From the NCBI GenBank assembly GCA_030746295.1, contig JASLMY010000001.1, positions 1-64,000 on the forward strand: a stretch of 64,000 bases of DNA, given 5' to 3'. Positions 22,090 through 35,994 of the stretch are shown piece after piece. Numbering within the stretch: the first letter of the stretch is position 1; the number at the start of each line of letters is the position of its first letter. Under the pieces are notes generated by a model. The model had not been told where the DNA came from. It made no database searches and saw nothing but the letters and a program-made list of their open reading frames with translations. The stretch is from Alphaproteobacteria bacterium. Lineage in GTDB: Bacteria > Pseudomonadota > Alphaproteobacteria > GCA-2731375. A program made the position numbers and the translations under genes.

Positions 22090-22875
22090 CTATCGAGACT
22101 TGCGATCGAGAAAGGGGCGTATCAGGCGTTCCGGCTCGTCGGTTTCATAGGCGCTGGCCAGCGACTCGATGCCGGCCTCTATGGCTGCCTCCAGCGGCTC
22201 CGATTCCCATTTCGCCAGCAACGCCTTCTGCAGGCGGATCGCCCGCGGACCCGCCGCCAGAAGGTCGTCGAGCCATTCCTCGACCGCCTGGTCCAGCTCC
22301 GCCCCAGGCACGACGCGCTCGACCAGGCCCATGGCCAGGGCCTCGTCGGCATCGTAGTTGCGGGCCAGATAGACGATCTCCGCCGCCTTGCCCCAGCCGA
22401 CGAGCCGGGGCAGCAGGGCCGCCTCGACGACCGAGGGCAGGCCGACCTTGACCTCGGGCATGGCGAAGACGGCGTTGGCACTGGCGATCCTGAGGTCGCA
22501 GGCTGCGGCGAGCTCGAGGCCGGCACCGAGACAGTAGCCGTTGACGCGGGCGATCACCGGCACCGGCAAGACCCGCACAGCGTGACAGACACGATGCACC
22601 CAGGTGATGAAATCGCGGGCCGCATCGACGTTCAGCGTCGCCAATTCCTGCAGATTGGCACCGCCGACGAAGGCCTTGTCGCCGGCGCCGGTCAGCACCA
22701 CGCATCTGAGCGCCTCGTCGCCGGCGACAGCCTCGAAGGCCGCGACGATCTGCGCCATCAGGTCGCGGGTCAGGGAGTTGAGCTTGCGCTCGTAGTCGAT
22801 AGTGATCCGGGCCACGCGCCCGGCCGCGCCCCGATCGACTACTTTGGTGTGCACCGCTGCCGTCTCGGTTTCCAT
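22090..22875 (-). CDS. Enoyl-CoA hydratase/isomerase (crotonase family)
   Basis: A 261-residue crotonase. Oxyanion-hole elements are VGGANLQEL and YCLGAGLELAAACD. Both catalytic glutamates are present (Glu121 in LELAA, Glu141 in MPEVK), so hydratase activity is likely. It is the last gene of the long minus-strand operon, 47 bases after the CoA-transferase, and is followed by a hairpin terminator. It probably hydrates the enoyl-CoA made by the operon's acyl-CoA dehydrogenase. It is a distinct paralogue from the crotonase at 3681-4490. Confidence 0.87.
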   Translation of the reverse strand: METETAAVHTKVVDRGAAGRVARITIDYERKLNSLTRDLMAQIVAAFEAVAGDEALRCVVLTGAGDKAFVGGANLQELATLNVDAARDFITWVHRVCHAVRVLPVPVIARVNGYCLGAGLELAAACDLRIASANAVFAMPEVKVGLPSVVEAALLPRLVGWGKAAEIVYLARNYDADEALAMGLVERVVPGAELDQAVEEWLDDLLAAGPRAIRLQKALLAKWESEPLEAAIEAGIESLASAYETDEPERLIRPFLDRKSR

Positions 22876-22922
22876 CTCATCCTCACTCGTCTATCGGTAG
22901 ATCGCGGCAACCGGCGCTTGCG

Positions 22923-24122
22923 TCAGGTCTCGGCGATGGCGCCGGCGGCGGCCAAGGCGTGAATGCCGGCGTTGTCGTAGCCGGCCTCTTCCAGGATCGC
23001 CCGGGTTTGCTCGCCGTACTTCGGCGGGAAGGCGAACTCGGTCCCGGCGCCGTCGATGTCGACCGCCATCGGCTGCATCCGCGTCTCGCGGCCGTCGGGC
23101 ATCCGAAGCCGGGTCAGTTTGTCTTGCAACGCGGGGTGCTCCATGACTTGCGGCACGGTCAAAATGGGGGCGTGCGGAATCATCGCCTCGGCCAGCACCG
23201 CGTCGACCTCGGCCGTCTTGTAGCGGCGAGTGACGGCGGCGATATCGGCGTGGATTTGGGCCCGGTCGGCGAGCCGGCCCTCGTTGGTGGCCCGACCCTC
23301 GTTGGTGATCGGGCGGAACATCGGGGTCTCGGACAGCCGCCGCCACATCACGTCGGAGCCGATGGCCATGAAGACCGCACCGTCGGCGGTCGGATAGGCG
23401 TTGGTGGGCACGAACTTGCGGTGCTCGTTGCCGCAGCGGGTGATCTCGGACGGGTCGCAGTCGAAGTCGACCAGCGGCAGCACCGTGATCAGCCAGGACG
23501 CGGCAGCCTGGAACATGGAGACGTCGATCCGCTTGCCCCGGCCGCTCGTGGCCCGCTCGGCCAGCGCCATCCAGACGTTGGCATAGACCTCGTCGCCGGC
23601 CTTGAGGTCGACCAAGGGGATGCCCGACAGCATCGGCGCCCGATCGGCCTCGCCCGTCACCTCCATGTAGCCGGCCATCGCCTGGATCACGGGATCGTAG
23701 CCGGCGACGTTGGGGAAGTCGGGGCCCATGGCCGAGATCGCGGCCCAGATCAGGTCGGGCTTGACCGTACTCAGGCTCTCGTAGTCGATGCCGAGCGGCT
23801 GATAGCGCGCCGGCAGGGTGTTGCAGCAGAAGACGTCGACGCCGAGCTCGGTGATGATCCGATGCAACGCCGCCCGCCCCTCGGCGGTCTTCAGGTTGAG
23901 GGCGATCGATTCCTTGGCGACATTGGGGGCGACGAAATAGGAGCGCCGGCCCTCGTCCTCGACGATGCTGCCGATATAGCGGTTGGGGTCGCCCGGCAGC
24001 ATGTCCGGGCGCGGCGCCGTCGCCTCCAGCTTGATCACCCGCCAGCCGAGCTGCACGAAGCGGAGCGTCGCATAGGTCATCGATAACGCCTGCTCCATCG
24101 ACAGGATGACGCCCGGTTTCAT
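22923..24122 (-). CDS. Class III (CaiB/BaiF) CoA-transferase
   Basis: A 399-residue CoA-transferase. KLEATAPRPDMLPGDPNRYIG and ALNLKTAEGRAALHR are family segments. The likely catalytic Asp172 is in LVDLKAGDEVYANVW, and GRGKRIDVSMFQAAASWL follows. The sequence is clearly different from the copy at 1904-3118, so the two act on different acids. The ATG overlaps the stop of the molybdenum hydroxylase large subunit by 4 bases. It probably supplies or recycles the CoA thioester for this operon, replacing the ATP-dependent ligase used by the other hydroxylase operon. Confidence 0.88.
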   Translation of the reverse strand: MKPGVILSMEQALSMTYATLRFVQLGWRVIKLEATAPRPDMLPGDPNRYIGSIVEDEGRRSYFVAPNVAKESIALNLKTAEGRAALHRIITELGVDVFCCNTLPARYQPLGIDYESLSTVKPDLIWAAISAMGPDFPNVAGYDPVIQAMAGYMEVTGEADRAPMLSGIPLVDLKAGDEVYANVWMALAERATSGRGKRIDVSMFQAAASWLITVLPLVDFDCDPSEITRCGNEHRKFVPTNAYPTADGAVFMAIGSDVMWRRLSETPMFRPITNEGRATNEGRLADRAQIHADIAAVTRRYKTAEVDAVLAEAMIPHAPILTVPQVMEHPALQDKLTRLRMPDGRETRMQPMAVDIDGAGTEFAFPPKYGEQTRAILEEAGYDNAGIHALAAAGAIAET

Positions 24123-34754: not shown

Positions 34755-34773
34755 GGCCCGCCCGCCTGTCCGC

Positions 34774-35994
34774 TCAAGCCGACTGCCGGTCACCGACCGA
34801 CAGCACCACCGCCATGGCGGTGTCGCCGGCGGCGCAGCCGGTGAAGAGACCGACGCCGCCGCCGCGCAAGGCCAGCTCCTCGATCAGCTCGATCACCGCC
34901 CGGGTCCCGGTCGGGCCCTGCGGATGACCCCAGATCAGCGAGCAGCCGTAGTTGTTCATCGATTCGAGGTCGGCCCCGGTCTCGGCGGCGAAGACGATGT
35001 CGTTGACGGCGAAGGGGTTGTGGGTCTTGATCGCGTCCATCTCGCTGATCTCCAACCCCGCTTGCTCGAGCGCCATTCGTGCCGCCGGGATCGGCGCTTC
35101 CGGCATGTAGGCGAGCTCGACCCGGGCGAGGCCGAAGCCCAAGAGCCGAACTTGGATTTCGGGGCTCGCGCTCAGCTCCTTCGCCTTTTCGGGTGCGGCC
35201 AGCACGATCGCGGCCGAGCCGTCGGCGGGATGGGTCTGGCCGCCGAAGGTGACCGTGCCGCCCTCCATCACCGGCTTCAGCTTGGCCAGGCCCTCGGCCG
35301 TCGATGGCGCGATGCCCTCGTCGCCGTCGAGGCTGGCGGCCGTTCGCTTCAAATTCTTTGTCGGCACTTCGAAGGGCAACGTCATATAGCGCTTCTGGAA
35401 GGCGTGGTCGTCGGCGGTGGCGTTTTCGTACTGCGCGTAACGCCTGAGTGCCACCCGGTGCTGGGCCTCGGTCGTGACCTGGTACTTGGCGGCGATGTTC
35501 TCCGCCGTCTCGGTCATCGAGTGGCGGCCCAGCGGGTCGCAGCCGAAGTTATCCCAAACCCAGTCCTCGGCCGCACCCTTGCCGCCGGGTCCGGAGGGGT
35601 CGGGGTAGAGGATATGGGGGCCGTTCGAGGTCCGGTCGGCACAGAGCACCAGGGCGGCCGAGGCCAGCTCCGACTCGATCTCCTGCGCCGCCGTCAGCAT
35701 GGTCCGCGCGCCGGTGGCGCAAGCCTGGGCGATCGTCGGCCCGCCGGCCTGGGGCGCGCCAATCAGCCCCATCAGCCAGGGCAGGCCGTAGAAGGCGTGC
35801 TGCTGCGGCACCGTCATGCCGAGGACGCCGTAGTCGAAGACCTCCGGATCGATCTCGCGCTTGGCAAGCTCCGCCTTGGTCACGTGCGCGGCGAAGGCGA
35901 GGCTGTGCAGGTTGGCGAAGCTGCCCTGCCAGCGGGCGAACGGCGTCGACCAATAGGCGCCGTAGGGTATTTCGGCTCGATAGGCGTCGGTCAT
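34774..35994 (-). CDS. Thiolase (SCP-2/acetyl-CoA acyltransferase type)
   Basis: A 406-residue thiolase. Nucleophile Cys92 is in AQACATGAR. The His of THNPFAVND, the GHPQGPTG segment and the second Cys in FTGCAAGDTAM complete the catalytic set, so it should be active. It would cleave a 3-ketoacyl-CoA. It is the first gene of the long operon; the 77-base spacer before it (35995-36071) is the likely promoter region, although read-through from recR and the EthD-like gene is possible. A GGGGAGAG ribosome site lies about 10 bases before the ATG. Confidence 0.88.
   Translation of the reverse strand: MTDAYRAEIPYGAYWSTPFARWQGSFANLHSLAFAAHVTKAELAKREIDPEVFDYGVLGMTVPQQHAFYGLPWLMGLIGAPQAGGPTIAQACATGARTMLTAAQEIESELASAALVLCADRTSNGPHILYPDPSGPGGKGAAEDWVWDNFGCDPLGRHSMTETAENIAAKYQVTTEAQHRVALRRYAQYENATADDHAFQKRYMTLPFEVPTKNLKRTAASLDGDEGIAPSTAEGLAKLKPVMEGGTVTFGGQTHPADGSAAIVLAAPEKAKELSASPEIQVRLLGFGLARVELAYMPEAPIPAARMALEQAGLEISEMDAIKTHNPFAVNDIVFAAETGADLESMNNYGCSLIWGHPQGPTGTRAVIELIEELALRGGGVGLFTGCAAGDTAMAVVLSVGDRQSA

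What the first reader, a model, noticed from the sequence alone, without database searches (positions are those of the whole stretch)
22090..35994. Eleven-gene acyl-CoA operon joining HyuAB, a split B12 mutase and a molybdenum hydroxylase
Seen: thiolase, HyuA, HyuB, acyl-CoA dehydrogenase, B12 subunit, mutase, FAD, 2Fe-2S and Mo subunits, CoA-transferase and crotonase on one strand with gaps of 0-47 bases or overlaps, ending in a hairpin. Known: HyuAB relatives either open lactam/hydantoin rings with ATP or carboxylate ketones; Mo hydroxylases add oxygen from water; B12 mutases move branched carbons. Inference: a full route from a ketone, N-heterocycle or branched acid to central acyl-CoAs. 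One scheme is ketone to 3-ketoacid (HyuAB), to 3-ketoacyl-CoA (CoA-transferase), then thiolase. I know no described pathway with this exact set.
Basis: partly seen in the sequence, partly recalled or inferred. Interest (0 to 1): 0.8.

Follow-up and report, generated by a model that had tools for sequence, protein, structure and literature searches.

The report
Bacterial auxin-degradation operon of known type
This eleven-gene cluster, apparently from an alphaproteobacterium, matches the known bacterial iaa operon that breaks down the plant hormone auxin (indole-3-acetic acid) through coenzyme-A intermediates, so it is a new example of a described pathway rather than an unknown one.

Summary
In detail: eleven same-strand genes (35994 to 22090, minus strand), close-packed, followed by a hairpin. 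This is not an undescribed ketone or branched-acid route but the iaa operon type for indole-3-acetate (auxin) degradation known from Aromatoleum aromaticum EbN1 and A. evansii KB740. Two loci of A. evansii KB740 carry ten of the eleven genes in the same order at 49-79% protein identity. The acyl-CoA dehydrogenase has the GGG motif published as the mark of IaaF. HyuAB is of the two-subunit lactamase type, not a ketone carboxylase. Most likely route: Mo enzyme makes the 2-oxindole; HyuAB opens the lactam; CoA-transferase; B12 mutase; decarboxylating dehydrogenase; hydratase; thiolase to 2-aminobenzoyl-CoA and acetyl-CoA. Smaller points not met in my paper searches: the IaaB ligase is missing from this operon (7 of 9 relatives with the same gap hold one outside the locus stretch); the Mo-hydroxylase trio comes in two types swapped as a block; the mutase clade shares an unusual GGG stretch where methylmalonyl- and 2-hydroxyisobutyryl-CoA mutases have HxQ. 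No activity was tested.

The parts
34774..35994 (-). 3-ketoacyl-CoA thiolase; proposed to release 2-aminobenzoyl-CoA and acetyl-CoA
   Evidence: Thiolase_N and Thiolase_C; 72-73% identical to the thiolase at the same place in Aromatoleum loci L048, L057, L066, L070, L074, L079, L080
32643..34793 (-). HyuA (IaaC type), ATP-dependent lactamase large subunit
   Evidence: Pfam Hydantoinase_A, Hydant_A_N and Hydant_A_C; best solved relatives 5-oxoprolinase and N-methylhydantoinase; 68% to both A. evansii KB740 loci
30960..32639 (-). HyuB (IaaE type), lactamase second subunit
   Evidence: Hydantoinase_B 471.6 bits; 79% to both A. evansii KB740 loci
29817..30950 (-). IaaF-type acyl-CoA dehydrogenase, predicted decarboxylating arylmalonyl-CoA dehydrogenase
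   Evidence: Acyl-CoA dehydrogenase domains; GGGTSEI in place of YEG at residue 360, GGG in 70 of 70 aligned sequences; motif published as the IaaF hallmark (PMC8360864)
29425..29820 (-). B12-binding small subunit of the acyl-CoA mutase
   Evidence: B12-binding domain; TIGR00640 147.8 bits, above its cut-off
27794..29428 (-). Acyl-CoA mutase large subunit (IaaGH type), predicted phenylsuccinyl-CoA/benzylmalonyl-CoA mutase
   Evidence: MM_CoA_mutase 642.1 bits; 69-71% to the seven Aromatoleum loci; clade-wide GGG stretch
26904..27788 (-). FAD subunit of molybdenum hydroxylase
   Evidence: FAD_binding_5 and CO_deh_flav_C
26450..26986 (-). 2Fe-2S subunit of molybdenum hydroxylase
   Evidence: Fer2 and Fer2_2
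24119..26443 (-). Molybdopterin subunit of molybdenum hydroxylase (type A), predicted to hydroxylate C2 of the indole ring
   Evidence: MoCoBD_1, MoCoBD_2, Ald_Xan_dh_C; groups with 27 type-A rows, apart from 32 type-B rows
22923..24122 (-). Family III CoA-transferase (IaaL type)
   Evidence: CoA_transf_3 215.8 bits; 63% and 65% to the A. evansii KB740 loci
22090..22875 (-). Enoyl-CoA hydratase family protein at the end of the operon, without a counterpart in the related loci
   Evidence: ECH_1; NF004795 302.4 bits, above its cut-off of 283; 0 of 48 well-flanked loci have a match at 40% identity or more
22031..22058 (-). Hairpin just downstream of the last gene
   Evidence: Fold of the 76-base stretch 22020-22095, -32.4 kcal/mol, z -2.61; not flagged by the terminator scan

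Best explanation
An iaa-type operon for degradation of indole-3-acetate or a close analogue. Inferred steps: the Mo hydroxylase adds oxygen from water at C2 of the indole ring to give the 2-oxindole; HyuAB phosphorylates and opens the lactam to (2-aminophenyl)succinate or its CoA ester; the family III CoA-transferase puts CoA on the carboxyl that the mutase needs; the B12 mutase turns (2-aminophenyl)succinyl-CoA into (2-aminobenzyl)malonyl-CoA; the GGG-type dehydrogenase oxidises and decarboxylates it to 2-aminocinnamoyl-CoA; hydration, dehydrogenation (enzyme not in the operon) and thiolysis give 2-aminobenzoyl-CoA and acetyl-CoA. CoA activation of the acid (IaaB) is not encoded in the operon and is probably encoded elsewhere in the genome. 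Shown here: gene content, order, similarity and motifs. Not shown: any activity or the substrate.
For: Same order and strand in both A. evansii KB740 loci L066/L080 (where a ligase gene lies between thiolase and HyuA): thiolase 73/73, HyuA 68/68, HyuB 79/79, dehydrogenase 76/75, B12 66/66, mutase 70/69, FAD 49/49, FeS 53/51, Mo 57/56, CaiB 63/65 %. A. evansii KB740 and A. aromaticum EbN1 are the strains in which the iaa locus was identified (PMC9613470 passage). IaaF is a decarboxylating benzylmalonyl-CoA dehydrogenase of the iaa operon; IaaL is the transferase and IaaGH the mutase (PMC8360864). The GGG motif of IaaF is present here and in 70 of 70 aligned sequences. IaaCE is listed as a hydantoinase-like hydrolase of A. 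aromaticum (PMC8453981 passage), and 2-oxoindoleacetyl-CoA lactamases form a cluster of the Hyd branch (PMC5214803 passage). 40 of 48 well-flanked loci hold all nine core genes, 40 of 40 in this order.
Against: No IaaB-like ligase in the operon; the only IaaB match in the window by tblastn (4520-6061, E cut-off 1e-15) is 33% identical and falls outside the IaaB clade. No 3-hydroxyacyl-CoA dehydrogenase in the operon, nor any match in the window to the fused dehydrogenase-hydratase, GntR regulator or binding protein that other iaa loci carry. The crotonase is not shared with the other loci. The Mo subunit is of the type unlike that of A. evansii. The IaaF paper does not mention a molybdenum enzyme in its main text, and of the two primary pathway papers the 2012 one is not held and the 2016 one was seen only as a citation, so the role of the Mo enzyme rests on recall, synteny and inference. 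EbN1's own operon was not compared directly.
Confidence: 0.9

Rival explanations
1. Same chemistry on another 3-substituted indole or N-heteroaromatic acid: the CoA-transferase, mutase and dehydrogenase core is kept but the Mo hydroxylase of this type accepts a different entry substrate, such as a substituted indoleacetate.
For: The Mo subunit falls in two clades, 28 rows (window included) and 32 rows, and the trio is swapped as a block between close relatives: L074 against L079, 96-99.8% in seven other proteins but 52-58% in the Mo trio. Five of 48 loci keep mutase and dehydrogenase without a Mo trio above my cut-offs (L003, L017, L035, L060, L071); L017 has a Mo match of 45% upstream.
Against: In the three swapped pairs HyuA, HyuB, mutase and dehydrogenase stay 84-99.8% alike, so both Mo types may do the same step; HyuA and HyuB trees were not made.
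Confidence: 0.25
2. Free-acid variant: without IaaB, the Mo enzyme and HyuAB act on free acids and the CoA-transferase charges (2-aminophenyl)succinate from succinyl-CoA.
For: No ligase in this operon; IaaL is reported to do intermolecular transfer with succinate as well (PMC8360864; PMC11659651 passage). Genomes of L035 and L056 gave no IaaB hit above 36%.
Against: Of 11 well-flanked loci without a ligase of 40% or more, nine genomes were searched and seven hold one of 43-50% outside the fetched stretch; six of these were fetched, lie on other contigs and fall inside the operon-linked IaaB clade; in L083 it sits beside a 68% iaa thiolase. The window's own genome is not held.
Confidence: 0.15
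3. Ketone carboxylation by HyuAB, then CoA transfer and thiolysis.
For: HyuAB belong to the hydantoinase/ketone carboxylase superfamily.
Against: Closest solved relatives are 5-oxoprolinase (466 bits) and N-methylhydantoinase (439), ahead of acetophenone carboxylase (295) and acetone carboxylase (228); carboxylases have further subunits (PMC5214803 passage) that are absent from the eleven genes; it leaves the mutase, the GGG dehydrogenase and the Mo enzyme without a role.
Confidence: 0.02

Closest known systems
iaa operon of Aromatoleum aromaticum EbN1 and A. evansii KB740 (anaerobic indoleacetate degradation)
   Same: Thiolase, HyuA, HyuB, acyl-CoA dehydrogenase, B12 subunit, mutase, FAD, FeS, Mo, CoA-transferase in the same order and strand; IaaF GGG motif (compared with A. 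evansii KB740 loci L066 and L080, not with EbN1 itself)
   Different: No ligase gene between thiolase and HyuA; no match in the window to the GntR regulator or binding protein found at L066 and L080; own crotonase at the end; type-A Mo trio
Caprolactamase CapAB, 5-oxoprolinase, N-methylhydantoinase
   Same: ATP-dependent lactam-opening family
   Different: Scores well below the caprolactamase equivalog cut-offs: 652 and 391 bits against 1000 each
Methylmalonyl-CoA mutase and 2-hydroxyisobutyryl-CoA mutase
   Same: PF01642 family; separate large and B12 subunits as in 2-hydroxyisobutyryl-CoA mutase (split there recalled)
   Different: Keeps RQY and the Arg aligned with that of mammalian methylmalonyl-CoA mutase, unlike RQI and Gln in 2-hydroxyisobutyryl-CoA mutase, but has RMIAGGGGSGLT and ALC where the aligned enzymes have RxHCQT and HTN (alignments were seen for these enzymes only)

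Membership tests
iaa operon | Conserved gene set and order shared with Aromatoleum iaa loci | tested here: met
   Ten genes in the same order in L066 and L080 of A. evansii KB740; 40 of 40 loci with all nine core genes have the same order and strand
iaa operon | IaaF subclass: GGG instead of YEG in the acyl-CoA dehydrogenase | tested here: met
   GGGTSEI at residue 360; GGG in 70 of 70; defined in PMC8360864
iaa operon | IaaB indoleacetate-CoA ligase in the operon | tested here: not met
   No AMP-binding gene between 22090 and 35994; window ligase at 4520-6061 is outside the IaaB clade. 37 of 48 well-flanked loci have one of 40% or more, 11 do not; most of those searched hold one elsewhere, so I treat it as a variable feature
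iaa operon | Growth on or turnover of indoleacetate | not testable with these tools
   Needs culture or enzymes
Hydantoinase/lactamase branch of HyuAB | Only two subunits; closest to lactam-opening members | tested here: met
   no third subunit among the eleven genes
Ketone carboxylase | Third small subunit in the gene cluster | tested here: not met
   Absent from the eleven genes
Methylmalonyl-CoA mutase (NF006944) | Score above equivalog cut-off | tested here: not met
   531.7 against 876 bits for the large subunit alone; the model covers a fused enzyme, so this test is weak

The most novel reading that the evidence does not exclude
The iaa core (transferase, mutase, decarboxylating dehydrogenase) is a shared chassis for several aryl-succinate-forming routes, and its entry substrate is set by an exchangeable three-gene Mo-hydroxylase cassette; the window carries a type-A cassette that hydroxylates something other than plain indoleacetyl-CoA. 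The mutase clade's loss of the usual HxQ and HTN residues would then mark a distinct arylmalonyl-CoA mutase active site.
Probability: 0.25. Interest if true: 0.5.

Novelty: new member of a known kind. Interest (0 to 1): 0.3.

Why it matters
It puts a name on a gene set that the curated models here score only as methylmalonyl-CoA mutase-, caprolactamase- and xanthine dehydrogenase-like. It adds what looks like an alphaproteobacterium to the likely degraders of auxin by this route. By their record titles the 80 related loci are mostly Alpha-, Beta- and Gammaproteobacteria; three (L002, L008, L017, titled Deltaproteobacteria, Neomarinimicrobiota and SAR324) have nearly identical mutases and may include misbinned contigs. 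The two swapped types of Mo hydroxylase and the odd mutase motif give direct, testable questions on enzymes of the pathway.

Tried and rejected
Ketone carboxylation and branched-acid readings: rejected on HyuA relatives and subunit number (PMC5214803 passages) and on synteny with iaa. Plain methylmalonyl-CoA mutase: rejected on score and motif. The window ligase at 4520-6061 as the missing IaaB: rejected, 33% and outside the clade (it sits on a long branch, so its exact place is unsure). Own-genome search failed because no genome is held. Literature searches returned no paper; some searches gave the papers used. PMC3370604 is not held, and the 2016 Environ Microbiol paper was seen only as a citation. 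Of PMC8360864 I read parts 1 to 4 of 6 and searched terms (no mention of molybdenum, hydratase or thiolase); of PMC5214803, PMC9613470, PMC11659651, PMC4207700, PMC8453981 and PMC12409115 only passages found by term; the PMC4207700 passages had nothing on degradation and PMC11373566 no passage for my terms. Other papers were seen only in search listings. DnaX relatives: the few named ones are mostly alphaproteobacterial, some are titled Bacteroidota; no close named match.

Limits: the 80 loci are the best 80 of 198 hits by closeness to this mutase, found by six peptide patterns, so co-occurrence is conditional on a close mutase. 48 of 80 had enough flank to be counted. Identity cut-offs were set by me; identities are cut, not rounded. 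In one search the dehydrogenase alignment kept 69 loci that were at least 85% covered and stop-free. In one search ligase matches shorter than 350 residues or with stops were dropped and not counted. In one search Mo rows under 50% identity or too short were left out (L017 is one). In one search, 21 of 81 mutase rows bear no Mo label. The Mo and mutase trees are FastTree trees with midpoint roots. That the ligase relocation, the Mo swap and the mutase motif were not met in print rests, none of which asked for these points directly, and the two primary papers were not read. The odds did not need to change.
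Full report
Observation. Eleven intact genes run on the minus strand from 35994 to 22090 with gaps of 3 to 47 bases or overlaps of 4, 4, 4, 20 and 83 bases by the longest starts (17 in place of 83 with the ATG at 26920). Pfam assigns thiolase, Hydantoinase_A, Hydantoinase_B, acyl-CoA dehydrogenase, B12-binding, MM_CoA_mutase, FAD_binding_5, Fer2, MoCoBD, CoA_transf_3 and ECH_1 in that order. 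A hairpin lies at about 22031-22058. Upstream are recR and dnaX, beyond the last gene on the plus strand a CRP-type regulator and an ABC-2 transporter. GC of the window is 68%. The best-scoring listed relative of DnaX is 68% identical over 89%; the named ones are mostly alphaproteobacterial.

Relatives. A scan of one genome per species for the mutase gave 198 relatives, of which the best 80 became loci. They include five Aromatoleum species with one locus each (L048, L057, L070, L074, L079) and A. evansii KB740 with two (L066, L080). tblastn of the window's proteins shows the same gene order in them. Of 80 loci, 48 have at least 8 kb before and 6.5 kb after the mutase. Among these 48: dehydrogenase, B12 and mutase 48, CaiB 46, HyuA 45, HyuB 45, FAD 43, FeS 43, Mo 43, thiolase 39, crotonase 0; all nine core genes in 40, and in 40 of 40 in the same order and strand; 35 of these 40 also have the thiolase, four of them on the other strand (L024, L028, L033, L065). 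The eight that fail my cut-offs: L060 and L071 lack HyuAB and the Mo trio, L072 lacks HyuAB, L003, L017 and L035 lack the Mo trio, L001 and L010 lack the CoA-transferase. Other genes that recur in these 48 loci: ligase of 40% or more 37, GntR regulator 27, binding protein 19, fused dehydrogenase-hydratase 11 (families).

Identity. A. evansii KB740 and A. aromaticum EbN1 are the strains with the published iaa locus for conversion of indoleacetate to 2-aminobenzoyl-CoA (PMC9613470 passage; the conversion also in PMC12409115 passage). In that pathway IaaL is a phenylsuccinyl-CoA transferase, IaaGH the mutase, IaaF a decarboxylating benzylmalonyl-CoA dehydrogenase and IaaB the ligase (PMC8360864, parts 1-4 of 6). 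[quoted passage not shown] The window protein has GGGTSEI at residue 360, and GGG is kept in 70 of 70 aligned sequences. IaaCE is listed as a hydantoinase-like hydrolase (PMC8453981 passage), and predicted 2-oxoindoleacetyl-CoA lactamases form a cluster within the Hyd branch (PMC5214803 passage). HyuA here scores 466 bits with 5-oxoprolinase, 439 with N-methylhydantoinase, 295 with acetophenone carboxylase and 228 with acetone carboxylase. That the Mo enzyme does the first step is, as I recall, part of the 2012 proposal, but that paper is not held, and the IaaF paper does not mention it.

Mechanism. Mo hydroxylase: indole C2 to oxindole. HyuAB: ATP-dependent lactam opening. IaaL: CoA on the right carboxyl. 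IaaGH: (2-aminophenyl)succinyl-CoA to (2-aminobenzyl)malonyl-CoA. IaaF: oxidation with loss of CO2 to 2-aminocinnamoyl-CoA. Hydratase, an unlinked dehydrogenase and thiolase: 2-aminobenzoyl-CoA and acetyl-CoA. All steps in this organism are inferred from similarity.

Mutase active site. The window mutase and its clade keep RQY and the Arg of GRGTW or SRGTW that align with mammalian methylmalonyl-CoA mutase, where 2-hydroxyisobutyryl-CoA mutase has RQI and Gln; this fits a substrate with a second carboxylate (residue roles recalled). In place of the RxHCQT and HTN stretches of those enzymes it has RMIAGGGGSGLT and ALC. Over 81 aligned rows the first stretch is RM[IL]A[AG]GGGxGL[TY] and the second [MIVT]ALC[CS][YF]DE[AG]. 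None of the eleven PDB sequence matches is named as such a mutase; isobutyryl-CoA mutase was not compared residue by residue.

Ligase. 37 of 48 well-flanked loci have an IaaB-like ligase of 40% or more in the fetched stretch. The window operon does not; the only match in the window, at 4520-6061, is 33% identical to IaaB of L031 and outside the IaaB clade, on a long branch. The 11 loci without one are L001, L003, L004, L035, L040, L051, L054, L056, L060, L071 and L077. Nine of these genomes were searched (not L060 and L071): seven hold a ligase of 43-50% outside the stretch, while L035 and L056 have none above 36% (the match for L040 covered only part of the query there, nearly all of it at 39%). 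Six of the seven were fetched; they lie on contigs of other lengths than the iaa locus and fall in a starred 14-row group with eight operon-linked ligases. The seventh, of L077, was not fetched and may be on the same contig. In the genome of L004 the ligase sits next to a 68% iaa thiolase (L083), and no thiolase match appears in L004 itself. So the ligase has left the operon in part of the Alphaproteobacteria, and its absence here does not by itself mean a free-acid route.

Mo cassette. The Mo subunit falls in two clades, 28 rows with the window and 32 rows without. Close relatives differ in the cassette only: L074 and L079 share 96-99.8% in the other seven proteins but 52-58% in FAD, FeS and Mo; L041 against L076 (81-93% and 53-59%) and L039 against L018 (88-94% and 50-62%) show the same. 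On the mutase tree the cassette label needs 6 changes, at least 3 forced by starred branches. The two A. evansii loci, by contrast, are 86-96% alike in all ten proteins. What the swap does is unknown.

Verdict. A real, well-conserved operon of a described kind. The new parts are modest: host, relocated ligase, swapped Mo cassette, mutase motif.

Noticed in passing
window 477-10436: Second CoA-based cluster: amidase and family III CoA-transferase on plus; crotonase, AMP-binding ligase, FeS, FAD and a Mo subunit fused to a CoxG domain on minus. The layout recalls furoate (hmf) clusters, which is recall only.
   Followed up: partly
L066 and L080 (A. evansii KB740): Two iaa operons in one strain, 86-96% identical in ten proteins and about 90% in DNA over nearly the whole fetched stretch.
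   Followed up: partly
L060, L071, L072, L026: Loci with close iaa mutase and dehydrogenase but HyuAB of only 28-38% identity nearby; possibly a different entry module on the same core.
   Followed up: no
window 36072-37250: ORF with a weak EthD-domain match (21.7 bits, under the cut-off of 22) on the same strand, ending 77 bases before the thiolase; its upstream part overlaps recR, so the true start is probably later.
   Followed up: no
window 44785-52482: Two family 5 solute-binding proteins in tandem with permease and ATPase genes of a peptide-type ABC transporter.
   Followed up: no
window 13392-18476: cbb3-type oxidase genes ccoN, ccoO, ccoP and ccoG, with a copper P-type ATPase at 10706-12907, so the host probably respires oxygen.
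   Followed up: no
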